Below, in pieces: positions 905 through 57,604 of a stretch of DNA of 64,000 nt (the first letter of the stretch is position 1; each line of letters begins with the position of its first letter). The notes beneath the pieces are model-generated. The model had not been told where the DNA came from and ran no database searches. It saw only the letters and a list, made by a program, of their open reading frames with translations. This DNA comes from Gossypium raimondii (lineage: Eukaryota > Streptophyta > Magnoliopsida > Malvales > Malvaceae): positions 6,944,001 through 7,008,000 of the forward strand of contig NC_068567.1 of the NCBI RefSeq assembly GCF_025698545.1, written 5' to 3'. The position numbers and the translations under genes were made by a program.

Positions 905-1352
905 GGGTAAACTATAAAAATGGTCATTTTTGTTTGTCTCATATTATATTTTAATTACTTATATTTGAAATGCTATGTTTTAGTCATTTACATTATCGTT
1001 TTGTTGCAAAGTGGTCACTCTACTATTAAACTCCATTACCTCCCTAACGGTAGTCCTACATGGCAGTCCAAATAGATTTTAAATGTCAACTTGGATGTTC
1101 AGTTGCTGGGATGAAAATAGGTTTTTAATTAAATAAATTTAATTTGGATTGCCACGTAGGATATCCAAGTTAGCATTTAAAATCCATTTGGACTGCAACG
1201 TAGGACCGCTATTAGGGAGGTAACAAAACTTAACGGTAGAGTGACCACTTCGTAACAAAACAATAACATAAATGACTAAAACATAACATTTCAAACATAA
1301 GTGACTAAAATATAATTCAAGGCAAACAAAAGTGACTATTTTTGTAGTTCAC
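905..1352. mobile_element. Mutator-like MITE with long terminal inverted repeats
   Basis: The left end reads GGGTAAACTATAAAAATGG and the right end is its imperfect reverse complement, ending near TTTTTGTAGTTCAC. The two arms stay complementary for about 200 bases, through GTGACCACTT, ACGTAGGA and TTAACGGTAGAGTG, so the element is almost entirely a fold-back. The flanks are poly-T rich (ATTTTTTAA on the left, ATTTTTTTAA on the right), which fits a 9-10 bp target duplication but is too simple to be decisive. It belongs to the same family as the elements at 42911-44432 and 55729-56444. No coding capacity was seen. Confidence 0.75.
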
Positions 1353-6307: not shown

Positions 6308-8134
6308 TTAGACATTGGCTTCTAGAAATTTCCAAACTGAAATCGAATGCATCGGCGTTCCCTTCCAACCGACGAGCAAGCATTTTCCGTTCATATCGAG
6401 TGTACAACAAGTCCCACACGCAAAAGTTTTGAGAATAAGGTCTGCTTGGTACTTGGATGACATGCTTAATTCGGCCTCCTCCATCCCGTACCGGACGAAA
6501 AACGCCCTCCAAACATCGAACTTCACGTTCCGGACCTTCCTGTCGGTGCCTTCAGCCGCTACCATGTTCCGAATTCCATCACCAAAGAACACTGATTCTA
6601 AGATCTCTCTGTTCTTACTATCCTGTTCCATGCAAGTAGCTATGCAATCAAAGTATGCACTGAAGTAAAACAGGACTTCGATGAAACGGTTCACGAAGAT
6701 CGGTGAGTTATGGTTGGCTTCGACTTCGGTTACCACCATTAAACAAGGATTCATAACCCTGAGTACCTTCATTATATTTTCGATCCGGTTCGGCGTCGCA
6801 AGCATGCTCCGGAAAGCAAACGCGGCGTAGGCAACTATGGTTTCTTCAGCATCAAGTTCAAAGAAATCTTCTTTAAGATCTAACATATCTGAGACCATAA
6901 CAACCTTAAAAGCAAAAGGTACTCCCAAACTCTGAGCAAAACTCGAGAGCCTCTTACCGGTACCATCAATTAAATCCTTTGCTTCGGTTGCAACCGCGGT
7001 TATTTTCAAGAGCTCGAGACGATATTCGTGTTGTCGAGATGCAAGAGCTTGGATTAAGATGGTCCATTGAATACCATTTTTTATTGCAAGATCAATTATG
7101 TGAACCTTATTGGCCTCAGCAACATTTTCCACAATGGCTTGGATCCCTGCAAATTGTGAAACCTGACCAAAAGGGAAAGCTCCATGGCATGCCAATACAG
7201 TAGGGTTCAAGGCTATCATATCCGTGTCGAAATTACACAAAGGTTTCCATTTTAAACTCTTCGATGAACTTCTTCCGGTCTCTCTTTCGATCTTCTCTCG
7301 AAGGGCTTCGGAGAAATAATAGACCACACGCTGAACCGGATTTCCGGTTTTCGATGACATGTAGTCACATTGTTTCAGCAATCTGCTTGCACTTTCATAT
7401 TGTTGGTACCCTACTTTCTCTGCAGCAGCAAGAAGGAGCGCCGCAAGCTCGATATCTCTCGTCTCCCGATCCGAAAATCCCGAAAAAGAAAGACTAAAAG
7501 GATGATCAACCCCAGAGATTCCATCAATAGTTTGGCCACATGACTTGAGAAACATCTCACCAGCAACCCTCATGACTTCTTCGGTCGAAAGCTTTCGGTC
7601 TTCGTCCTGAGTGTCGGATACGGTTATGTCATCATCGGTTTTCCTTTCCCCATTCAACCGTTTGAATCCATTGCCATAGTTGTTTAGCAGTCCAAGAGAA
7701 GATAAACCAGGGTACTGTTTTCCCTTCTTTGCCTCACCAATATCTTCATAAACTCCATTGTTGATCCCACCAAGCTCTGCAATTTCATCGAAACATGCTT
7801 GAATCAATGGAGATTGAGCATTGAAACTCACACCATTATGCAGACCATATTCTATAAAACTTTGTTGTTCTTGTTGCTGCTGCTGCTGCTGCTGATGATC
7901 TTGTTTGAAGAAACTGAAACCAGAGGCCTCCATTGATGCATCTCCATAGAATCCATAATCAGAAGGCAAGGAATCAATGCCACCAGTTTCACCCCAATCT
8001 TCAACACCATAAAAACCACCAGCTTTCCCTTTATTACCTCCATCAGAGCTCTCAAATTCATTATTAGAAGAACTCAACTTATCTGGAGCTCCATAAACAT
8101 TCAAGTCAACAAAAGAGAACACATCATTCCCCAT
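6308..8134 (-). CDS. GRAS family transcription factor, DELLA/RGL-like but without the DELLA motif
   Basis: This nuclear transcriptional regulator has 608 residues in one coding exon. The N-terminal ~220 residues are low-complexity and acidic with an eight-glutamine run (about residues 81-88, from a CAG/CTG repeat). From about residue 228 the GRAS domain is complete: LHRI (IELAALLLAAAEKVG), the VHIID motif (VHIIDLAIKNGIQW, 344-357), LHRII (LLKITAV), a PFYRE region around VTEVEANHNSPIFVNRF, and the C-terminal SAW motif (VGWKGTPMHSISVWKF). DELLA and TVHYNP motifs are absent, so gibberellin-triggered degradation as in true DELLAs is not predicted. The closest match I recall is plant proteins labelled DELLA RGL1-like. 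The ATG at 8134 sits in ACCATGG; the open frame reaches 8146 only through a TTG. A 5' UTR intron is likely: donor GTAAGATC just below 8650, acceptor CATTGCAG ending at 8141. Confidence 0.93.
   Translation of the reverse strand: MGNDVFSFVDLNVYGAPDKLSSSNNEFESSDGGNKGKAGGFYGVEDWGETGGIDSLPSDYGFYGDASMEASGFSFFKQDHQQQQQQQQEQQSFIEYGLHNGVSFNAQSPLIQACFDEIAELGGINNGVYEDIGEAKKGKQYPGLSSLGLLNNYGNGFKRLNGERKTDDDITVSDTQDEDRKLSTEEVMRVAGEMFLKSCGQTIDGISGVDHPFSLSFSGFSDRETRDIELAALLLAAAEKVGYQQYESASRLLKQCDYMSSKTGNPVQRVVYYFSEALREKIERETGRSSSKSLKWKPLCNFDTDMIALNPTVLACHGAFPFGQVSQFAGIQAIVENVAEANKVHIIDLAIKNGIQWTILIQALASRQHEYRLELLKITAVATEAKDLIDGTGKRLSSFAQSLGVPFAFKVVMVSDMLDLKEDFFELDAEETIVAYAAFAFRSMLATPNRIENIMKVLRVMNPCLMVVTEVEANHNSPIFVNRFIEVLFYFSAYFDCIATCMEQDSKNREILESVFFGDGIRNMVAAEGTDRKVRNVKFDVWRAFFVRYGMEEAELSMSSKYQADLILKTFACGTCCTLDMNGKCLLVGWKGTPMHSISVWKFLEANV
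7857..7902 (-). repeat. CAG/CTG trinucleotide repeat encoding polyglutamine
   Basis: The plus strand shows a run of CTG and TTG triplets, coding for eight consecutive Gln plus nearby Gln residues in the GRAS protein N-terminus. Such tracts often vary in length between accessions. Confidence 0.85.
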
Positions 8135-24370: not shown

Positions 24371-27189
24371 TGTAACACCCCTTACCCAAAACCGTTGCCG
24401 GAGTCGAGCACGAGGCATTACTTAACTTATTTTACTAATTCGGAGCATAAAAATTTACTTTGCAAATTAATTTCATTATTTACAGCAAAGCTGTCCAATC
24501 ACGCAACAGTTACTAAATTAAGTATAACTCGAGCTACGGAACTCGAAATTTAATTACGTAAATTTTCCCTGAAACTAGACTCATATTTCTACTTACCATA
24601 AAATTTTTGGAATTTTTTCTTCAGCCAATTAGTACAGTTTATTAGTTAAAGTCTCCCCTATTTCACCACCTGACAGTCCTGACCTCTTGTCACTAAAAAT
24701 AAGTTTTCTCACTGTAGAATTTTCATATTAAGTTCTTACTTGTTTATACAGAAAATAGACTCAATAAGGAATCTAGACATATAAACTATAACTCATAACC
24801 ATTTTTATACAATTTTTAATGATTTTCTAAACTCAGAATAGGAGACTCCAAAAACAGTTCTGACCTTGTCTCACTAAAATTCACATATCTTAAAATATAA
24901 ATTTCCTTTTGCTACACCGTTATTTTTCCATGAAAATAGACTCAATAAGATTTCATTCCATATATTATTCACCCTCTAATTCATTTTATACTATCCTAGG
25001 TGATTTTTCAAATTCACGTCACTGTTGCTGCCTGAATTCTGTTTCTTTGCACAATTTTACCTTTTCATGATTTCCATACATAATTTATCACCTAAACTCT
25101 TATAACAACAAATACCTTCACGCTTAACCATTTTAATGACCATACATCATCAAATACTTACACACCATTCTTTATCAAAATCATAACTACAAACATACAA
25201 AATAACTAAATCCCTATACATGCCATAACTTAAACATGTTTCATCATAAAATACCGAGTAGTTGTTTTTGATAGTGTGGATGATCTCCGACTTCTTTAAG
25301 ATCCTTGAAGTAGCCTTGCAATACTATAAGAGAAAGAGAAATAAAAGACGTAAGCATAAAGCTTAGTAAGTTTACTAGCAAATAAATAACAATATTTAAC
25401 TCAAATAATTAAACTCAAATGTCTATATCTCTAGTTTACTCTTTAGTTAATCTCATACTAGTTCTCTTGCTTGTTTACTTAATATACTTGTGTTCATAAC
25501 TTACTCTTCTCTTGCTGCATCGTCGAATATCAATTGATAATATAATAAGTTCTTAGCTCTTATAACTTACCTGAACTTGCCATTCATGTTTTTAACTGAA
25601 CTTTCCTGAACATGATTCGTTTATTAGCCCGTTGAGCTACATTGGAACAATAAGGATTCTCGGGTCTCTTCTGATAATAACATGCCAAAGCCATGTCCCA
25701 GACATGGTCTTACATGGGATGTTCTCATGTCGGTGCCCATGCCATGTCCCAGACATGGTCTTATAGGGGACCTCTCATCTCGGTGCCAACGCCATGTCCC
25801 AGACATGGTCTTACATGGGACCTCTCGTCTCGGTGCCAACGCCATGTCCCAGACATGGTCTTACATGGGACCTCTCGTCTCGGTGCCAATGCCATGTCCT
25901 AGACATGGTCTTACATGGGACCTCTCATGATCTCAAGGATGCCAATTCCATGTCCCAGACATGGTCTTACATGGGATCTCTTTACCCAAATGTCATGACA
26001 TTCGTATCCAGTACCATCCTTATGTATCAACGGGACTTTTTAATTTTAATTCTCTATCATTTCATGCTTGGATCATCATCAAATAAATTCATAAAATAAA
26101 TTCATAATTGCTGGAAAATAACAGCATTAATAATAATTATTAAAATATTGCATTTATTTACCGTAAACTTACCTCGGTATCAAATATAGTCCAATTCACC
26201 AACTTAGTCTTCAGCTTTATTCTTCCCTTTGTCTAACCTCGAGTTTCGTTCTTCTTGATCTAAAATAGCAAGTTTAACTTATTTAATACTCACATTCATC
26301 AAAACAGCCCTCGACTCTAACTTTTTCAAAATTACAATTTTACCCCTAAACTTTTGCATAATTACATTTTTGCCCCAAGGCTCAGAAATTAAACTTCATC
26401 CCTTATTCTTATGTTTTATGACATGCTGAACATTTTTCCCTTCTATGGAAACATCAAATTCCCACTCTAACATGTACTTAAGAACATTAGATATTTTTAC
26501 CGATTATGTCGTTTTACTCGTTTTCACTTAAAATCGGCTAGCAAAAGTTGTTTAACATAATTTCTAGCTTCATATTCTATCATAAAACATCAAAATAAAC
26601 ACTTTTCACCTATGGGTATTTTTCCAAATAAAAACCCTAGGTTAAATTATTGCTAAAATAAGCTAAATTAAGCTACCGAGATCTGAAAAACGTAAAGAAC
26701 ATTAAAAACGGGGCTTGGGATCACTTACTATGGAGCTTGGAAGCTTGAAAACCCTATCTATGGCTTCCCCCCTTGCTGATTTCGTCCTAGTGAAGAAGAT
26801 GATGATTTTTGCCATCTTTTTCCCTTTTAATTATTTTTATTACTAGATTACCAAATTGCCCCTAACTTAAAAATTTTCTATTTCACTTATCTCATGTCCA
26901 TTTTTGTCTACCAAGATACCAATGGTCTAATTACCATATAAGGACCTCCAATTTAAAGTTTCATAACAATTGGACACCTCTAACATGTAGAACTCAACTT
27001 TTGCACTTTTTACAATTTAGTCCTTTTGACTAAATTGAGTGCCCAAACATCGAAATTTTCGAACGAAATTTTCACAAATTCATTTTTTGAAATCGTAGAC
27101 CATAAAAATATAAGAAAAATAAAATTTTCCTCATCGGATTTGTGGTCCCGAAACCACTGTTCCGATAACCTTAAATTTGGGCTATTACA
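24371..27189 (-). repeat. 3' LTR of the gypsy element
   Basis: 2819 bp, bounded by TG and CA. It is aligned throughout with 32013-34826. It contains a six-copy tandem array around 25690-25970 and carries no conserved reading frame. Confidence 0.95.
25682..25978. repeat. 50-bp tandem repeat built on a palindrome, in the 3' LTR
   Basis: Six copies start near 25690, 25741, 25791, 25841, 25891 and 25945. Each contains CCATGTCCCAGACATGG, an inverted repeat with a three-base centre, followed by TCTTACATGGGACCTCTC. The open frames across it (repeated PDMVLHG or AMSQTWSYMG) only reflect the unit translated in different frames. Confidence 0.9.
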
Positions 27190-27206
27190 ACTCTCCCCCC
27201 CTTTTT
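27190..27206 (-). other. Polypurine tract of the gypsy element
   Basis: On the minus strand AAAAAGGGGGGGAGAGT lies immediately before the 3' LTR. This is the plus-strand DNA priming site used in LTR retrotransposon replication. Confidence 0.85.
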
Positions 27207-28050
27207 AGGATTTTTGTCCTCGAAAATCTTACCAGTAAAGAGGTTTGGGTACTGTTTTCTCATTGCCTCTTCCGGTTCCCATGTCGCTTCCTCAATCCCG
27301 TACTTTTGCCATAACACTTTCACCAAACTTATCTTTTTGTTTCTAAGCTCCTTTGTTTCCCGTGCTAATATCTTAACCGGTTCTTCATTATAAGTCATAT
27401 CGGGTTGAATCTCCACTTCTGTCGGAGTAATAACATGTGAAGGATCGGATCGATACCGTCGTAGCATAGATACATGAAAAACATTATGAATTCTATCGAG
27501 TTCCGGTGGTAAAACCAATTGATAAGCAACCGGTCCAATTCTTTCTATGATTTCATATGGTCCGATAAATCTTGGACTCAATTTATCCTTTCGACCGAAC
27601 CGAAGAACTTTCTTCCAAGGAGACACTTTTAAGAATACTTTATCACCCACCTGAAATTCAATGTCCCTTCGTTTAAGATCGGTATATGACTTTTGACGAT
27701 CGGAAGCTACTTTTAAACTATCCCGAATCAGCCTTACTTTTTCTTCTGTTTCCCGGATCAAATCAACCCCGTGTATCTTCTTTTCACTGAGCTCTGTCCA
27801 ATATAATGGTGTTCTACATTTTCTACCATATAAAGCTTCATACGGAGCCATTTTAATACTGGACTGATAACTGTTATTGTAAGCAAATTCAATCAAAGGT
27901 AGATACCTTTCCCAATTACCTTGAAACTCTAATACACAACATCGAAGCATATCTTTCAACCTGAATTATACGCTCAGATTGGCCATCTGTCTGAGGATGA
28001 AATGTAGTACTGAAATACAACTGAGTACCCAAAGCTTCTTGCAATTTGTC
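27195..28050 (-). pseudogene. Gypsy integrase C-terminal part with chromodomain-like tail
   Basis: From about 27959 the frame reads through FAYNNSYQSSIKMAPYEALY, the GPYEIIERIGPVAYQLVLP core and VFHVSMLRRY, to a terminal VLWQKYGIEEATWEPEEAM segment resembling a chromodomain. It is separated from the catalytic part of integrase by a TAG at 28051-28053 (Trp position) and by an indel near 27960. The region containing the third catalytic residue (TDGQSER) is still readable in another frame between these lesions. Confidence 0.85.
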
Positions 28051-29535
28051 CTAGAAACGAGACGTAAATCTGGGATCTCTATCTGATATAATGGAGACAG
28101 GCACTCCATGTAGTCTAACAATCTCAGATATGTACAATTCAGCCAATCTATCTAAAGAATAATCCATACATACTGGGATAAAGTGCGCGGACTTTGTCAA
28201 TCGGTCGACAATTACCCAAATGGTATCTTTGTTCCTCGAAGATAACGGTAACCCAGATACAAAATCCATAGTGATTCTTTCCCATTTCCATTCCGGTATA
28301 GTGATTGGCTGAAGCAACCCCGAAGGTACCTGATGTTCAGCTTTAACCTGCTGACATACTAAACATCTTGATACAAACTCAGAGATATCACGTTTCATAC
28401 ACGGCCACCAATACATTTTTTTCAAATCATTATACATTTTATTACTCCCCGGATGTACAGACATAGTACCGCTATGAGCCTCGTGTAGAATCTTCTGTAT
28501 AAGCTCGGAATCCTTTGGTACACATACTCTGCCTCTGAATAATAAACAACCATCAGTCCCAATTTGAAATTGTGAATCATTACCTGACTCACATTGTACC
28601 CGTTTAGCCTGTAACTTTTCATCATTTTTCTGAGCCTCATATATTTGTTGACGAAACATCGATTTAGCCTTCATTTCAGCTATGATTGAACCATCATCAG
28701 TCAGTGACAACCGGGCATTCATAGCTCGTAAAGCAAACAGAGATTTTCGGCTCAAAGCATCAGCTACCACGTTAGCCTTACCCGGATGGTAATCAATAAC
28801 CAAATCATAATCCTTTATCAATTCAAGCCACCTACGGTGTCTCAAATTCAAATCTTTCTGTGTCATCAAATATTTCAAGCTTTTGTGATCAGTATAAATA
28901 TGACACTTTTCACCATACAAATAATGTCGCCATATTTTCAATGCAAATACAATAGCAGCTAGCTCGAGATCATGTACTGGGTAGTTTCTTTCATGTGGCT
29001 TAAGTTGTCTTGAAGCATAGGCTATTACTATATCTTCTTGCATCAAGACACAACCTAAACCATTTAATGATGCATCACTATAAATAATAAATTCCTTACC
29101 CGATTCATGTTGTACCAACACAGGTGCTTTTGTCAACAACTCATTCAATCGGTCAAAACTTTGCTGGCATTTATCTGTCCATTCAAATTTAACATCTTTC
29201 TGTAATAAATGGGTCATCAGAGAAGCTATCATAGAAAACCCCTGTACAAATCTCCGATAATATCCAGCTAATCCCAAGAAACTTCTAACTTCAGATATAT
29301 TCTTCGGTGGACTCCAATTGACAATGACTGAAATTTTACTTGGATCTACCCTGATGCCTTCTGCCGATACAATATGTCCAAGAAAACCTACCTCTCGAAG
29401 CCAAAATTCACATTTATTAAATTTAGCATAAAACTTCTTTTCACGCAGAATTTGCAACACTATTCTCAAATGTTCTGCATGCTTATTTTCATCTTGAGAA
29501 TAGACTAAAATATCATCAATGAAAACTACTACAAA
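28051..29535 (-). pseudogene. Gypsy reverse transcriptase C-terminal half, RNase H and integrase core
   Basis: One open frame covers [14 protein letters not shown] (RT catalytic Asp pair) and the RT thumb ([15 protein letters not shown]). RNase H shows [13 protein letters not shown], with [11 protein letters not shown] and [10 protein letters not shown]. The integrase zinc domain follows ([13 protein letters not shown] and CLVCQQVK), then the first two integrase acidic residues ([18 protein letters not shown]). A single inserted G at 29536 separates it from the N-terminal RT part, and a TAG at 28051 ends it. Confidence 0.9.
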
Positions 29536-29536
29536 C

Positions 29537-30253
29537 TTTGTCCGGATCTGATGCGAATATCCGGTTCATCAAATCCATGAATACTGCAGGTGCATTAGTC
29601 AACCCAAACGGCATAACCAGAAACTCATAATGCCCATACCTGGTCCTGAAAGCTGTCTTTGGCACGTCTGGCTCTTTTACCCGTAACTGATAATAACCCG
29701 ATCGGAGATCAATCTTCGAAAATACTGTGGCATCTTTCAGGTGATCAAATAAGTCATCAATTCGAGGCAACGAGTACTTATTCTTTATAGTTACCTTATT
29801 AAGTTACCGATAGTCAATACACAATCTCAAAGACCCATCTTTCTTTTTCACAAACAGAACTGAAGCACCCCAAGGTGAATGACTCGGACGAACAAAACCT
29901 CTGTCAACAAGTTCCTGTAACTGTGCCTTTAACTCTTTTAATTCTGTAGGAGCCATACGATACGGAGCTCTGGAAATTGGGGCAGTTCCCGAAATTAGAT
30001 CTATGGAAAATTCCACTTCTCTTTCCAGTGGTAACCCTGGTACCTCTTCTGGAAACACATCAGAAAATTCACATACAATTGGCACTACCTGTATCTTTAA
30101 CTCAGATACCTTAGTATCCAACACATACGCCAAATAAACATCATACCCTTTTTTGACACACCTCCTAGTTGTCATAACTGAAATCATATCGGATAATCCT
30201 TCTGTCTGATCAGGTTTAACCCGAAGTAATTCTCCATTCTGGCATTTCAACAC
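29537..30253 (-). pseudogene. Gypsy protease end and reverse transcriptase N-terminal half
   Basis: Two in-frame pieces are separated by a TAA at 29804-29806 directly after LRLCIDYR, where the family has Gln. The first carries [13 protein letters not shown] and [13 protein letters not shown]; the second carries the RT palm motifs [32 protein letters not shown] and [12 protein letters not shown]. The frame breaks at the G insertion at 29536. Confidence 0.9.
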
Positions 30254-41265: not shown

Positions 41266-42761
41266 TTATTCATGGTGCTTCACCACAGTCACGGCGCAGG
41301 AACCATTGTTCACCACATAGTTACTTACACTGCCCATTATAGCCCTAACAAAGACAACATCAAGATGATTAAAATCATATCCAAAATGATGAAAGCCATG
41401 AACACAAATGATAATTCACCTTTTAAGCTTGCCGAGCCCTCTATTTCCTACAATTATGCAGTTAAGAGGGATACTATCAATAGCCTCACATAACTTCTCA
41501 CGTGGATCACCCCAATAAGCTTCCATAAGAACCTCAACCTGAGAATCACATACAAATACCATTTATTAAGAACTGCAATTAAATGAAGTTCGAATGTTTC
41601 ATGGATTTTTGGTGAAGAAATATTGCTTCTTTTTGCTTAGCACCATTGCTAACAATTTCCACTACTTCAGGGTCATGCTTTACTCCATACTTCTTCATGG
41701 TTGCAGGATAATTAATGGAACAAAGGCTAAAAAAAGGGACCAAAAGAAAATCAACAAAAACAGATTTAAGAAAAACAAAAGCTTTTTTATATCTGATTTT
41801 TAGAACATAGCTGCAATGGTTGATCTTGGCATTAAGATTTCGAGTGTCTAACTAAAAATAAAAAAATATTAGAAAATTTAGTTAAGATGTTCAAAAATTT
41901 GATAATTCTAATTAAAACTTTCAAAAATTTTAAAGGCTTAATGAAATTTGACAAAAAATTTGAAAGGATCTAATTAAAATTTTGAAAAACTCTAAAAGAT
42001 TCAATGAAAATTTTCAAAATTTTCAAGAGGCCTAACTAAAATTAAAAATATTTAAGGGTCTAAATATAAATTTCAAAATTTAGGGACCACTCATTACCAT
42101 TGGCCTCTACATAGCTAGATAATAACCTAATTTTTTCTCGAGAAACAAACATCAAGAAAAATTCCAAATAAAAGAAGTTAAAATATGCTCTCAATTGCTT
42201 TACTTTAACAAGGTTTAAGTGCTTAAAATTTTAAAATTAAATTCTCTTATATTTTTTATTTAAAGATCTTAATTTATTAAAATAGTTAATTTTTTATCAA
42301 AATTTATCAATATGACATGATGACATGTTATTAATTAACAAAAAATAAACTTGTTAGATTGAAAATTTTGAAGAAAGAAAACACTCCCTGTATTAATGAT
42401 TAGCATGGAGAAGCCTAAAAAATTATCATCTAAAATTGAATTATAAATTTTAAAAGTTAAAATATAATTTTATTATATTAATTTAAAATTTAATATAGGG
42501 ACTAAATCTCAATTTCTTTTAAAATGCGGGACTAGTGACACATTTTGACCTAGAAAAAAAAATGGAAAGAGAAGATTACATACGTGAACCGATGCCTTCC
42601 CAGAGTTGCATCTCGCCCTTCTCATAATTCCCTTCGGGTTGTATGGTAATAAGGGTAAGATGATCCTCTTTCCGGATAACGTTTTCCATAGCCCATTTTA
42701 ACGCACTCTTGCTACTAGATGAGAAATCTATAGCCACCCCAATTCTCCTTTCAGTCGCCAT
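41266..42761 (-). pseudogene. Universal stress protein (UspA-type) gene, probably frameshifted
   Basis: Four exons are recognisable on the minus strand. Exon 1 (42761-42584) reads MATERRIGVAIDFSSSSKSA and continues to EGEMQLWEG-like sequence. Exon 2 (about 41731-41626) contains TMKKYGVKHDPEVVEIVSN and GAKQKE. Exon 3 (41538-41420) reads VEVLMEAYWGDPREKLCEAI through the ATP-loop-like VGNRGLGKLKR. Exon 4 (41344-41266) reads AIMGSVSNYVVNNGSCAVTV. Exons 1, 3 and 4 are intact, with GT donors at exons 1 and 3. Exon 2 begins after TTTTTTTAG in one frame (PFVPL) but MKKYG is in another; compared with the usual PLTEFSDPATMKK-like sequence about ten bases are missing, so translation should hit a stop. 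The exon 2 donor is GC, not GT. Confidence 0.75.
41821..42575. other. Intron 1 of the stress-protein gene, with an AT-rich repeat
   Basis: Variants of AATTAAAATTTTGAAAAA and GGCCTAACTAAAATT recur between 41860 and 42080, probably an old MITE inside the intron. No exon-like sequence was seen here. Confidence 0.4.
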
Positions 42762-42910
42762 ATCTCACCGTAGAATATACGTATATGTGCAAGCCTTTTG
42801 GGCTTCTTGTTTTTTTCCTTCTTCTGGATTGATCTATGTTATTCGTGTAGGAAGAGTTTGCGGTGTTTTCATAATTTGTTATGATAATCAATAAACAACC
42901 AAATAATAAA

Positions 42911-44432
42911 GGGTAAACTACAAAAATAGTCACTTTTGTTTGACTCAGGTTACATTTTAGTTACTTATGTTTAAAACGTTACGTCTTAGTCACTTATGTT
43001 ATTATTTTGTTACGAAATGGTCACTCTTCCGTTAAGTTCCGTTATTTCCCAATGGTAATCCTACGTGGCAGTCTAACTAGATTTTAAGTGCCAAATTGGA
43101 TTTCCTAATGGGATGAGAATAGATTTTTAATTAAATAAATTTAATTAATTAAAAATTTTAAACCCTAAATCTTAATTAAAAAACCGTTCATCTCTTTTTT
43201 TTTTAGTTTTCTTTTTCAGTTGACTAAGAAAGTTATTTTTTAGCCATGGTTAGATACACACAGCTGACCATGCATTATTATTTAGTTTCTAACATATTAC
43301 ATTTTATGCAGTACTCTTAACTTACAGCCATGGAATTTGCTCTGAATAAGATTGATAAACACTGGGACAATAACAGAAGCCTTAATCAGCATATGAATGA
43401 CCTGAAAAGGAAAGTAATGGAATTGAATGGTGTGAAGGAAGATATAGATTCTAGAATGAAAGCAGAGCTGCAGCCAAGAAAGAAACTCAAGAGGGAGGTC
43501 CAGATATGGTTAGAAAACGTTGAAAGAATCAATGGCGAAGTTCAAAACCTTAATGAACGAATCGGTGAAAGCAGTACTCTTACACGTGGATTTCATGCAG
43601 ACGATGTGTTAAAGAGGACAAGAGAAGTTGAGGAACTTATTCAGCAAGGCAAATTTCAGGAAGATTTGGTGGTTGACAATCCTCAATGGATTGGATAGGT
43701 TCTGTCGACAACAAGATTATCAGGTGAAGGTACAAAGGTCTGTATGGAAGAGATTTGGAAGTGCTTGATGGATGATGAGGTTGGAAAGATTGGAGTTTGG
43801 GGGATGGGTGGTGTGGGGAAAACAAGCATCATGAAACTTATAAACAATCAACTCTTACAAGAGAGGGAGAAGTTCGATATTGTAATTTGGATCACTGCAT
43901 CCAAGGAGATGAGTATTGCTAAGCTACAGAAGGCCATTGCAAGTCAAATTAAAGTAACTTTTTGTGGTGACAATGTGAAACAAGAAGGGCACGGATGCTG
44001 TTTGAAACATTGTCTCGGAAGAGTAGATTTGTGGTGATCTTGGATGATATATGGGAAGCGGTTTCCCTTGAGAAGCTAGGAATTCCTGAGCCATCTACTG
44101 GGATTAAATTAGTGTTGAAAACTAAAAAAAGAAAACTAAAAAAATGGGGGAGATGAACGGTTTTTTAACTAAGATTTAGGGTTTAAAAATTTTAATTAAT
44201 TAAATTTATTTAAATAAAAATCTATTCTCATCCCATTAGGAAATCTAAGTTGGCACTAGAAATCTAGTTGGACTGCCACGTAGGATTACCGTTAGGGAAA
44301 TAACAGAACTTAACGGAATAGTGACCACTTTGTAACAAAATAATAACATAAGTGGCTAAAACGTAACAATTCAAACATAAGTGACTAAAATAATCTGAGG
44401 CAAACAAAAGTGACTATTTTTGTAGTTTACCC
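42911..44432 (+). mobile_element. Pack-MULE: Mutator-like element carrying a CC-NBS-LRR gene fragment
   Basis: The termini GGGTAAACTACAAAAATAGT and its reverse complement begin inverted repeats of roughly 300 bases (42911-43218 and about 44120-44432), nearly identical in sequence. The flanking nonamer AATAATAAA is perfectly duplicated at 42902-42910 and 44433-44441, the Mutator hallmark. No transposase is present; between the arms lies about 800-900 bases of resistance-gene sequence. The element sits about 150 bases upstream of the stress-protein start codon. TIR relatives are at 905-1352 and 55729-56444. Confidence 0.92.
43330..44115 (+). pseudogene. Captured 5' part of a CC-NBS-LRR disease-resistance gene
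   Basis: The frame from ATG 43330 encodes a coiled-coil N-terminus rich in Lys/Glu heptads (LNQHMNDLKRKVMELNGVKE) and then DNPQWIG before a TAG at 43696-43698, where a Gln codon is expected. In the same frame beyond it lie KIGVWGMGGVGKTSIMKLIN (P-loop) and FDIVIWITASKEMSIAKLQK (RNBS-A). A shift near 43988 moves the frame, after which RARMLFETL and RFVVILDDIWEAVSLEKLGI (kinase 2) are readable, ending at GIKLVLKT where the terminal repeat starts. LRRs and most of the NB-ARC are absent. It resembles the RPS5-like CNL group. It cannot encode a working receptor. Confidence 0.9.
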
Positions 44433-44458
44433 AATAATAAATAGCCAATCCACAAAAA

Positions 44459-44610
44459 ATGGTAATAAACGGTCACGAGTTTAGTGAAAGCAAGGGAGAA
44501 AAGGCGTGGGAAAAAGTCTTGTTAAATGAAAGTTTGCAGTTTGTGGTAGGGTGTACGAGTTTTGATGTTTTTAAACCGCTAGATGGAGATCAATTAGTTA
44601 TTATTGTTGA
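44459..44610 (+). other. Short open frame of unknown meaning, cut by a hAT-like element
   Basis: The frame starting MVINGHEFSESKGEKAWEK remains open into the element that begins at 44611. Without that element and one copy of its target duplication it would continue for nine more codons (EARFRSFG, then TGA). I recognise no family. It may be chance. Confidence 0.2.
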
Positions 44611-45024
44611 TAGGAGTGAGTATTTAATTGAGTCGAGTCGAATTGAGTAAAAAAATTTCAAGTCAAGCCGAGTCGAATTAACAAATCTTATTATTTATAT
44701 TCAATGATGCATTTACATAGATCGATTATTTAACTAATAGACGAAGTACAATATTATTTTAACTATATAAACAACATAATGGTTTTCCCTTTTAATTTAA
44801 TGAGTAAACATTTATCAAAAAGACGAAATTTTACCTTTTCTTATTTAAATTTTCGGATAATTTAAATTGTGTAATTCATATTCGAGTTAAACTAAAAGAC
44901 TTGATTTTTTTATTCGAGTTGATCCGAATAACTCGATTAACTCAAATAACTTGAACTATTTAATTCAAAATTTGAAATTTTTTACCGAATTTTTTCGAAT
45001 TGAACTATATTTTGGTCGCCCCTA
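44611..45024. mobile_element. hAT-like MITE with GAGTCGA-rich ends
   Basis: The ends are TAGGAGTGAG and, reverse-complemented, TAGGGGCGACC. Flanking octamers ATTGTTGA (44603-44610) and ATTGTCGA (45025-45032) agree at seven of eight. The subterminal sequences carry GAGTCGAGTCGAATTGAG on the left and ACTCGATTAACTC / TTCGAATTG on the right. The 414-bp element is non-coding. Confidence 0.7.
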
Positions 45025-55728: not shown

Positions 55729-56444
55729 GGGTAAACTACCAAAATAGTCACTTTTGTTTACCTCGAGTTACATTTTAGTCACTAATGTTTGAAATGTTAC
55801 GTTTTAGTCACTTATATTATCACGTTGTAAGATTTTAGTCACTGAGCAGTTAATTGCCGTTAACGGTGTAACAGTAGGCTAACATGGCACATTAAATCAT
55901 CATTTAAAAGAAAAAAAATTTAGGTTAATTTATAAAATCACTCCCCATATTTTTTTCGTTTTGAGCAATTTAGATTTTTTTCTTTTATGTTTTTTTTAAC
56001 TTTCTTTTTTTTTTCTTTATTTTCCATTCTCTTCTGCTTCTCCCTCTATTTTCCTCCCTTCTCCATTTCTTTTAATGTAATTTTTCTATGTTTTTCGCTT
56101 GTTAAAACTAGTCCCTATACTTTTTTTTTTGAACATTTAATATTTTCAAGTGAGGTTAGCTTTTGAACTAGTTTTAACAAAAGAGAATGAGAAAATAGAA
56201 AAGTTCAAAGAACATAAAAGAAAAAAAATTAAAATTGCTCAAAATGAAAAAAAATATAGGGACCAATTGTAGGATTTAACTTAAAATTTTCGTTTGAAAT
56301 GATAATTTAATGTGTCACATCAGCTTACCGTTACACAGTTGACGGCAATTAATGACTCAATGACTAAAATATTACAACACGATAACGCAATTGACTAAAA
56401 TGTAACCTGAAGCAAATAAAAGTGACTATGTTGGTAGTTTACCT
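55729..56444. mobile_element. Mutator-like MITE with perfect 9-bp target duplication
   Basis: The ends GGGTAAACTACCAAAATAGT and its reverse complement (GACTATGTTGGTAGTTTACC) start inverted arms of about 190 bases. The nonamer TTATTTTTA is duplicated exactly at 55720-55728 and 56445-56453. The interior is pyrimidine-rich on one side and purine-rich on the other, extending the fold-back. It is non-coding. Confidence 0.85.
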
Positions 56445-56596
56445 TTATTTTTAACATACATGTGTTAAAAAGAATCATATATTTTATTAATTAATAAAAA
56501 AATTAAATGTAAAAATTAAAACAACATCACTTGGCATATCTATCAGCGGGTGAGGATGGTCTAGGAACGGTTTTCTATTAGCGTTTTTAGCATATC

Positions 56597-57604
56597 TTGG
56601 GAGATGAAGTGGCTAGTTATTGCATTGGTCTTTTAAACGATGAGTTTCTTATAAATCTTATTAATCATACGCATATTGTCTTAATTCCAAAAGTTAAGAG
56701 TCCTCGCAGCATACTAAATTTTTGCCCTATAAGCCTTTGTAACGTATTGTATAAGATTGCTTCAAAGGCTTTGGTGAATAGGTTTCAAGAAGTTCTTCGG
56801 TTTTGCATTGATGAGGCACAAAGCGCATTTGTGCCGGGGCGTCTTACTTCTGATAATATTGTGGCAGCTTATGAGATTCTCCATTCCATAAAAAATAGAA
56901 GATTTGGTAAAGAAGGGTTGTTTGCTCTCAAGTTGGATATGAGCAAGGCGTACAACTGTATTGAGTGGCGGCTCATTGAAAAGATGTTATTGAAAATGGG
57001 TTTCTCTGTCAATTGGGTGGAACGGATTATGTGGTTCATCACGTCAGTTACTTACTCAGTTGTGGTTAATGGGAGGGTGGGAGATAAGTTTCCGCCATCT
57101 CGGGATCTTCGATAGGGAGATCCTTTGAGTCCATATCTGTTCTTAGTTTGTGGTGAGGGCCTTTCGGCTTTGCTTAGGTTGGCAGAAAGTAGTGGTGCGA
57201 TAAAAGGAGCAAGGGTGATGAGAGGGCCCTTGAGGGTTACTCATTTATTGTTTTCAGACGATAGTCTCATTTTTGGGGATGCCACGGCAATGAAAGCATT
57301 GAATGTCTTGAAGGTGCTTCAATCATATGCCAAGTGTTCTGGTCAACTGGTCAATTTTGAAAAATCTAGAGTTTTCTTTAGTTCAAATGTAGACATGAGG
57401 AATCAGTTGGATGTGGAGAGAATTTTGGGGGTTCACCATGCTGATAATTGGGAGAAATACTTGGGTTTACCTTGTATGGTTGGTCGAAACAAGAAGTGGG
57501 CTTTTGCTAGCCTAAGAGATAAAATTCAAAGTCAGATATCTTCTTGGAGTGCGAGGCTGTTATCTATGGGTAGCAAGGAGGTTTTCATCAAATCCATTCT
57601 CTAA
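56597..57604 (+). pseudogene. LINE reverse transcriptase
   Basis: The first frame (56597-57115) contains HIVLIPKVKSPRSILNFCPI, NRFQEVLRFCIDEAQSAFVPGR and the catalytic-region ALKLDMSKAYNCIEW. A TAG at 57113-57115 replaces the Gln of the usual RQGDPLSPYLF motif; the frame then continues in phase. The second part carries the catalytic FSDDSLIF motif and GQLVNFEKSRVFFS, and ends at TAA 57602-57604. It is typical of the plant L1 clade. Confidence 0.9.

What the first reader, a model, noticed from the sequence alone, without database searches (positions are those of the whole stretch)
42902..44441. Pack-MULE that has captured the CC and P-loop region of an NBS-LRR gene
Seen directly: ~300-bp near-identical inverted ends, a perfect 9-bp duplication AATAATAAA, and resistance-gene sequence between the arms with P-loop GMGGVGKTS and kinase-2 ILDDIW. 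Established: Mutator-like elements without transposase that carry host gene pieces are Pack-MULEs. Inference: transcription across it would give RNA with long complementary arms around an NBS segment, a possible source of small RNAs against related resistance genes.
Basis: partly seen in the sequence, partly recalled or inferred. Interest (0 to 1): 0.78.

Follow-up and report, generated by a model that had tools for sequence, protein, structure and literature searches.

The report
Multi-copy resistance-gene-carrying Pack-MULE in cotton
A cotton jumping gene has picked up the front part of a disease-resistance gene, broken it, and copied it to at least seven places in the genome; this is a well-made example of a known kind of element, and one copy appears in the public gene catalogue as a resistance protein.

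Summary
At 42911-44432 lies a 1522-bp Mutator-like element with ~306-bp inverted arms (280 of 304 aligned positions identical, so diverged rather than near-identical) and a perfect 9-bp target duplication (AATAATAAA). About 887 bp between the arms (43232-44118) come from a coiled-coil NBS-LRR (CNL) gene. The window's assembly matches Gossypium raimondii. It holds at least seven full copies (98-100% interior identity) on six chromosome-scale contigs, each with its own target duplication. The closest host genes lie in a CNL cluster on contig C11 (best match 94%), where the gene continues past the captured piece and no arms were found. All seven copies share one stop codon and one 14-bp junction duplication: one capture, coding ability lost, then spread. 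Sister elements with the same arms carry a different host fragment (phosphate transporter, about 27 copies). C-to-T changes in CHG context suggest past methylation of the captured part. Two cotton miR482 sequences and one miR482-like cotton candidate fail the published targeting rule here. Small-RNA silencing of resistance genes is untested. One copy equals a public 'disease resistance protein RFL1-like' model. Verdict: a genuine, multi-copy, decayed Pack-MULE; new member of a known kind.

The parts
42902..42910 (.). left 9-bp target-site duplication AATAATAAA
42911..43231 (+). left terminal inverted arm (aligned to the right arm over 42911-43216; the similarity to sister elements' arms runs on to about 43232)
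43232..44118 (+). captured host DNA: end of a CNL gene's 5' leader (a putative 3' splice site is my reading), coiled-coil region, P-loop to kinase-2; junctions uncertain by 1-3 bases
   Evidence: Pfam
43330..43698 (+). coiled-coil-region ORF, ATG at 43330, ending at TAG
43696..43698 (+). in-frame stop TAG, shared by 7 of 7 copies and absent from the closest host gene
43801..43822 (+). P-loop segment (GMGGVGKT), where miR482 is reported to pair with CNL mRNAs; this best-scoring 22-nt stretch is identical in 7 of 7 copies and in two host CNL genes; fails the rule for the three sequences tried
43971..43972 (+). place of a 1-bp deletion (frameshift) shared by the window, C11 and C3:31.37 Mb copies (3 of 7)
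44037..44054 (+). kinase-2 motif ILDDIW in the shifted frame
44117..44144 (+). 14-bp perfect tandem duplication GAAAACTAAAAAAA at the right capture junction; exact string in 7 of 7 copies, in 0 of 17 sister-element loci (16 distinct places)
44126..44432 (-). right terminal inverted arm
44433..44441 (.). right 9-bp target-site duplication AATAATAAA

Best explanation
The feature is a non-autonomous Mutator-like element, a Pack-MULE, one of at least seven copies of a subfamily in a Gossypium raimondii genome. Shown: arms, target duplications, seven copies at 98-100% interior identity, one shared stop codon, one shared junction duplication, and a CNL cluster on C11 holding the closest host genes. 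Inferred: an element of a large MULE family, whose other members carry a phosphate-transporter fragment, lost its middle and filled the gap by copying ~887 bp of a CNL gene (template switching, leaving a 14-bp junction duplication). A stop codon then ended coding ability, and transposase from a MULE elsewhere mobilised the element to at least seven sites. Host cytosine methylation probably silenced the copies. The most likely function for the plant is none: it is a decaying mobile fragment.
For: Arms and perfect target duplication. Seven copies with independent target duplications. NB-ARC matches. Closest host gene C11:3403437-3404331 at 94%, with no arms in the 9.9 kb fetched around it and with the gene continuing past the captured segment. 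TAG in 7 of 7 copies; 6 further stop codons spread over 4 of 7 copies in the ancestral frame; 1-bp insertions or deletions in the coding part of 6 of 7. Nonsynonymous:synonymous changes among copies 28:16, not different from a spectrum-matched null (p 0.12), 6 of them to stops. 14-bp junction duplication in 7 of 7 copies and 0 of 17 sister loci. C-to-T changes at CHG 11 of 52 versus CHH 10 of 272 in the interior. MULE transposase domains are plentiful in the genome: 150 of 2055 candidates scored, 150 over cut-off.
Against: No transcript, small-RNA or methylation data. No autonomous element with these arms was identified. The methylation footprint is significant in the interior but not in either arm taken alone, and the control genes are more diverged. 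The exact parental gene is not settled: the best G. raimondii match is 94% in DNA, while a G. hirsutum protein (P0128) matches the element's translation at 97% over 66% of it. Under a simpler null (ts:tv 2:1) nonsynonymous changes are slightly fewer than expected (p 0.049). One of the seven target duplications is imperfect (C11 copy, 8 of 9). No empty site was found in this genome.
Confidence: 0.92

Rival explanations
1. The seven copies act in trans: transcripts with complementary arms, or read-through antisense transcripts, give 21-24-nt RNAs that silence CNL genes of the C11 cluster.
For: 324 of 865 21-mers of the interior match at least one of eight fetched CNL loci (seven on C11, one on C10) perfectly, 245 of them the closest gene's locus. 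The interior shows a CHG-biased footprint. In rice, 24-nt small RNAs map to the internal and arm regions of genic-MULEs (PMC4858842, passages read).
Against: The arms pair imperfectly, with longest perfect runs of 32, 31 and 24. No RNA data. Methylation alone explains the footprint. The P-loop site fails the published rule for the three miR482-type sequences tried, with a mismatch at position 11.
Confidence: 0.05
2. The element encodes a short working CC-NB protein, as the public G. raimondii model 'RFL1-like' implies.
For: P0121 (225 aa) matches the C11 copy in 225 of 235 columns, the other 10 being one gap.
Against: The gap removes 30 bases that end in the shared TAG, an intron too short to be credible (intron length rule recalled). 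The protein ends in a frameshifted tail. Stops and frameshifts accumulate among copies.
Confidence: 0.02
3. A resident CNL pseudogene that happens to lie between two unrelated MULE arms.
For: Arms of this family are abundant: 2354 first-look candidates for the left arm, 40 scored.
Against: Same arms, same junctions and same interior at seven places, each with its own target duplication.
Confidence: 0.01

Closest known systems
PM-ZIBP, a multi-copy Pack-MULE family of tomato (PMC3310237, passages read)
   Same: A host gene fragment between MULE arms, amplified to many copies with target duplications of 9-10 bp in the table lines shown; 13 tandem-arm copies plus one single-arm copy reported there.
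   Different: Different arms and a zinc-ion-binding gene. Most of its copies have doubled arms, while the copies here have single arms. Here a sister set with the same arms carries a second host gene.
Pack-MULEs / genic-MULEs of rice (PMC4858842, passages read; Jiang 2004 and 2011 known only from citations and recall)
   Same: Non-autonomous MULEs with host gene pieces and no transposase; small RNA and methylation at arms and interior are reported there.
   Different: Dicot host, a CNL fragment, with stop and frameshift; expression, small RNAs and methylation not measured here.
LTR-retrotransposon-mediated NLR duplication in pepper (PMC5664825, two passages read)
   Same: A mobile element copies NLR sequence.
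   Different: That route is RNA-mediated and intron-losing; here DNA was captured, apparently with leader/intron sequence, by a DNA transposon, and the product is a fragment.

Membership tests
Mutator-like element (MULE) | long terminal inverted repeats | tested here: met
   ~306-bp arms, 280/304 identical
Mutator-like element (MULE) | 9-11-bp target-site duplication, different at each insertion | tested here: met
   seven copies: four exact at 9 bp (window, C8, C4, C3:31.37 Mb), two exact at 10 bp (C2, C10), one with 8 of 9 matching (C11)
Mutator-like element (MULE) | mobilised by a MULE transposase | not testable with these tools
   MULE transposase domains are plentiful, but none was tied to these arms
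Pack-MULE | carries host gene sequence whose source lies elsewhere in the genome | tested here: met
   CNL cluster C11:3.32-3.42 Mb; no arms at the fetched loci there; exact parental gene not settled
Pack-MULE | no transposase between the arms | tested here: met
   ORFs >=40 aa listed, longest 125 aa; of these the three main interior ORFs were scanned and give NB-ARC or nothing above cut-off; none of the 150 PF10551 matches scored (of 2055 candidates) falls inside the element
CNL resistance gene (functional) | intact open frame through CC, NB-ARC, LRR | tested here: not met
   stop, frameshift, and truncation after kinase-2
miR482 target | score <=3.5 and no mismatch at positions 10-11 (rule in PMC3877274) | tested here: not met
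   scores 4.5-5.0 with a position-11 mismatch for ghr-miR482a, ghr-miR482b and one miR482-like cotton candidate; other miR482 members not tested
small-RNA-producing locus | mapped 21-24-nt reads | not testable with these tools
   no read data

The most novel reading that the evidence does not exclude
A MULE family that swaps host cargo (phosphate-transporter fragment in one branch, CNL fragment in another) has put seven methylated copies of a CNL P-loop region across the genome. These feed 24- or 21-nt RNAs that dampen the C11 CNL cluster, so transposon copy number tunes a resistance-gene cluster.
Probability: 0.05. Interest if true: 0.75.

Novelty: new member of a known kind. Interest (0 to 1): 0.38.

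Why it matters
It is a clean case of one capture followed by spread to at least seven sites, with the broken frame fixed before the spread, so the spread cannot have depended on the encoded protein. It also shows two different host genes carried by one arm family, and a public 'disease resistance' gene model that is a transposon copy. NLR counts in cotton may be inflated by such copies. If small RNAs from the copies were found, transposon control of a resistance cluster would become directly testable.

Tried and rejected
miR482 target or decoy at the P-loop: ghr-miR482a, ghr-miR482b and a third, miR482-like cotton candidate score 5.0, 4.5 and 4.5 with a mismatch at position 11, so the site is not predicted as a target; other family members were not tested because I did not find their letters in the text passages read. 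Purifying selection on the fragment: not supported, though a cruder null gave p 0.049. Empty site elsewhere in the same genome: joined flanks gave 43 matches (40 of 453 candidates scored); only the window's own two flanks matched at full length, the rest were partial, and none spanned the junction. Rfam scan of 42300-45000: no family at gathering threshold. PDB comparison of the NB part only repeated NB-ARC membership. Autonomous partner: MULE transposases are abundant, but I could not link one to these arms; the loci could not be cut out. A 4-kb sister element (L051) contains an insertion without any transposase ORF that I could recognise by eye. Ages: with a substitution rate recalled at roughly 3.5e-9 per site and year, mean pairwise divergence 2.3% would mean a few million years; offered only as a rough figure. 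Papers: all ten searches used; I saw the listings, and passages of twelve papers. In those I saw no report of an NBS-carrying Pack-MULE family in cotton; most subscription papers are not held.

Full report
What was checked. The sequence at 42902-44441 shows a direct repeat AATAATAAA on both sides of a 1522-bp unit that begins GGGTAAACTAC and ends GTAGTTTACCC. The two arms align over 309 columns with 280 identities among 304 aligned positions and 5 gap positions. They are clearly inverted copies but not near-identical. Between them, 43699-44037 matches Pfam NB-ARC at E 4.3e-17 and 43971-44156, in another frame, at E 4.7e-9. The preceding ORF 43330-43698 has no Pfam family above its cut-off but aligns with N-termini of cotton CNL proteins.

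Where it comes from. The protein search gave 152 relatives at E <= 0.001 among 1448 candidates, 120 listed. The first by E-value, P0001, is a G. barbadense protein at 79% over 86% of the query; the best with full coverage is P0002 (G. mustelinum) at 93%. The assembly that holds the window (750.8 Mb, 281 contigs) has a contig C11 of 63,188,200 bases, the same length as the contig of two G. raimondii proteins, P0009 and P0121. P0009 matches a gene of that contig at 100% over 738 residues. I infer that the genome is G. raimondii.

Copies. A search with the interior (43219-44125) gave 42 matches; 40 of 61 candidates were scored. Seven are full-length at 98-100%: the window (C3:6987219), C8:62015418, C4:15271925, C11:58035752, C2:48244850, C3:31371887 and C10:2810414. 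All seven have both arms and a length of 1522-1526 bp, and each is flanked by its own duplication: AATAATAAA; TAAAATCTT; TTAATAAAA; TAGTTTTAA/TAATTTTAA (8 of 9); TTTTATATTG (10 bp, or 9 bp if the last G belongs to the element); TTTAGGAAA; TATATAAATT (10 bp). Mean pairwise divergence is 2.3%, range 0.6-2.9%. The C11 and C3:31.37 Mb copies group together (support 100/99), as do C8, C4 and C2 (93/89). The window copy shares a 1-bp deletion with the C11 and C3:31.37 Mb copies.

Source gene. The next matches are host CNL-like genes, mostly in C11:3.32-3.42 Mb: 94% (C11:3403437-3404331), 89% (C11:3385446), then 80-85%, with one 81% match on C10:6880603 and weaker ones beyond. At the best locus the gene runs on beyond the captured piece (open frame of 350 aa, interrupted later). 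No arm match (E <= 1e-5) was found in the eleven CNL-matching loci searched, which are nine distinct places, one of them the lone C1 piece. The match is uneven: 86 of 100 columns at the start of the coding part against 93-98% elsewhere. A G. hirsutum protein (P0128) matches the element's translation at 97% over 66% of it, and matches the best G. raimondii gene at only 85%. The true parent may therefore be a neighbour that is lost or changed in this genome.

Anatomy of the capture. On the left, arm sequence shared with sister element L047 runs to about 43232 and gene sequence starts there. On the right, gene sequence ends at about 44116-44118 and is followed by a perfect 14-bp tandem duplication, GAAAACTAAAAAAA, at 44117-44144. 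The exact string is in 7 of 7 copies and in none of 17 sister loci, which are 16 distinct places. One capture with a slipped junction is the simplest account; template switching during gap repair is inference.

Decay. The stop TAG at 43696-43698 is in 7 of 7 copies and not in the closest host gene. The ancestor of the seven therefore already lacked the open frame. Four copies carry six further stops in the ancestral frame (C8 one, C4 three, C2 one, C10 one), and six of seven carry a 1-bp insertion or deletion in the coding part (C4 is the exception). Among copies there are 28 nonsynonymous and 16 synonymous changes, 6 of them to stops. A null built from the observed mutation spectrum expects 74% nonsynonymous (p 0.12); a cruder null gave p 0.049.

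Methylation footprint. Against a majority ancestor, C-to-T changes over the element hit 11 of 48 CG, 14 of 71 CHG and 27 of 411 CHH sites. In the interior alone the figures are 6 of 24, 11 of 52 and 10 of 272 (CHG versus CHH p 6.7e-5). In the arms taken alone the contrast is not significant (left: CHG 1 of 10, CHH 10 of 66; right: CHG 2 of 9, CHH 7 of 72). Six host CNL loci (five on C11, one on C10) show no CHG excess (8 of 39 versus 45 of 217; p 1) and a weak CG one (7 of 18; p 0.083), though they are more diverged, so the control is imperfect. I read this as past transposon-type methylation of the captured part.

Sister elements with another cargo. Many other loci have these arms (2354 first-look candidates for the left arm, 40 scored). 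Those examined include ~1.58-kb elements whose arms are ~490 bp and whose middle encodes the start of a phosphate transporter (TIGR00887, 3.9e-45 over the fragment but far below the full-length cut-off; Inorganic phosphate transporter 1-11). That middle has 26 matches at 92-100%, one more copy interrupted by an insertion (two pieces), one host-like match at 84% and four at 72-76%, besides seven 52-base pieces (40 of 40 candidates scored). Of 14 distinct places of this kind that I examined, 13 showed arm matches of 250 bases or more on both sides, three of these with one arm lacking its outer end, and L070 showed none. The CNL element's left and right arms each form a supported group lying among the arms of these sisters; the backbone is unresolved and the root is arbitrary, so descent of the CNL element from a transporter-carrying one is likely but not proved.

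Public annotation. P0121, 'disease resistance protein RFL1-like' of G. raimondii, matches the C11:58.036 Mb copy in 225 of 235 columns; the other ten are one gap that ends at the stop, and the protein has the same frameshifted tail as the window. The public model is therefore a transposon copy.

Setting. The window copy lies about 150 bp upstream of the predicted start codon of a universal stress protein gene on the minus strand (exon 1 Pfam Usp 2.5e-7; start codon 42759-42761 read; a second putative exon piece gave no Pfam match). The C11 copy is followed about 1.7 kb downstream by an ORF with a Rieske domain. Of three ORFs scanned beside other copies, one near C2 gave a PH domain below cut-off and those near C8 and C10 gave nothing; the rest was only listed.

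Regulatory idea. 324 of 865 interior 21-mers match one of eight fetched CNL loci (seven on C11, one on C10) perfectly, 245 of them the closest one, so small RNAs from the copies could in principle act on the cluster. The arms pair in perfect runs of at most 32 bases. The P-loop stretch pairs with ghr-miR482a, ghr-miR482b and a third, miR482-like cotton candidate at 5.0, 4.5 and 4.5 with a mismatch at position 11, failing the rule in PMC3877274 (passages; sequences from PMC4628322 and PMC3639194, passages). No RNA data were available.

Comparison and novelty. The testable features of a Pack-MULE are met. Multi-copy Pack-MULEs are known, for example PM-ZIBP in tomato (PMC3310237, passages). What is particular here is the CNL cargo and the difference of cargo within one arm family. 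I rate it a new member of a known kind.

Noticed in passing
window 905-1352 and 55729-56444: Two shorter relatives of the same arm family; the second is flanked by TTATTTTTA on both sides, the first by imperfect A/T-rich repeats.
   Followed up: partly
L047:956-1456 and about 27 genomic places: Sister Pack-MULE family carrying the start of a phosphate transporter gene; a host-like 84% match lies at C10:26963180.
   Followed up: partly
C11:58035752-58036656 (L041): A copy of this element is annotated publicly as a resistance protein (P0121), with a 30-bp 'intron' over the stop.
   Followed up: yes
L045 (C11:3400000-3409900): The CNL gene closest to the captured piece loses similarity to its relatives after about 333 codons, and a copia-like polyprotein ORF (my reading, no family search) lies about 4 kb downstream.
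   Followed up: no
C1:35552347-35552494 (L024): A lone 148-bp piece, 93% like part of the captured segment, with no arms within 1.5 kb.
   Followed up: no
window 27174-29565, minus strand: LTR-retrotransposon ORFs with reverse transcriptase, RNase H, integrase zinc-binding and chromo domains; ORFs further on to 32073 look like the rest of it but were not scanned.
   Followed up: no
window 56591-57604: Reverse transcriptase ORFs (Pfam RVT_1 for 56591-57112; the second ORF not scanned) starting about 150 bp after the short MULE that ends at 56444.
   Followed up: no
window 6311-8134, minus strand: GRAS-domain gene, 98% identical to a cotton DELLA RGL1-like protein.
   Followed up: partly
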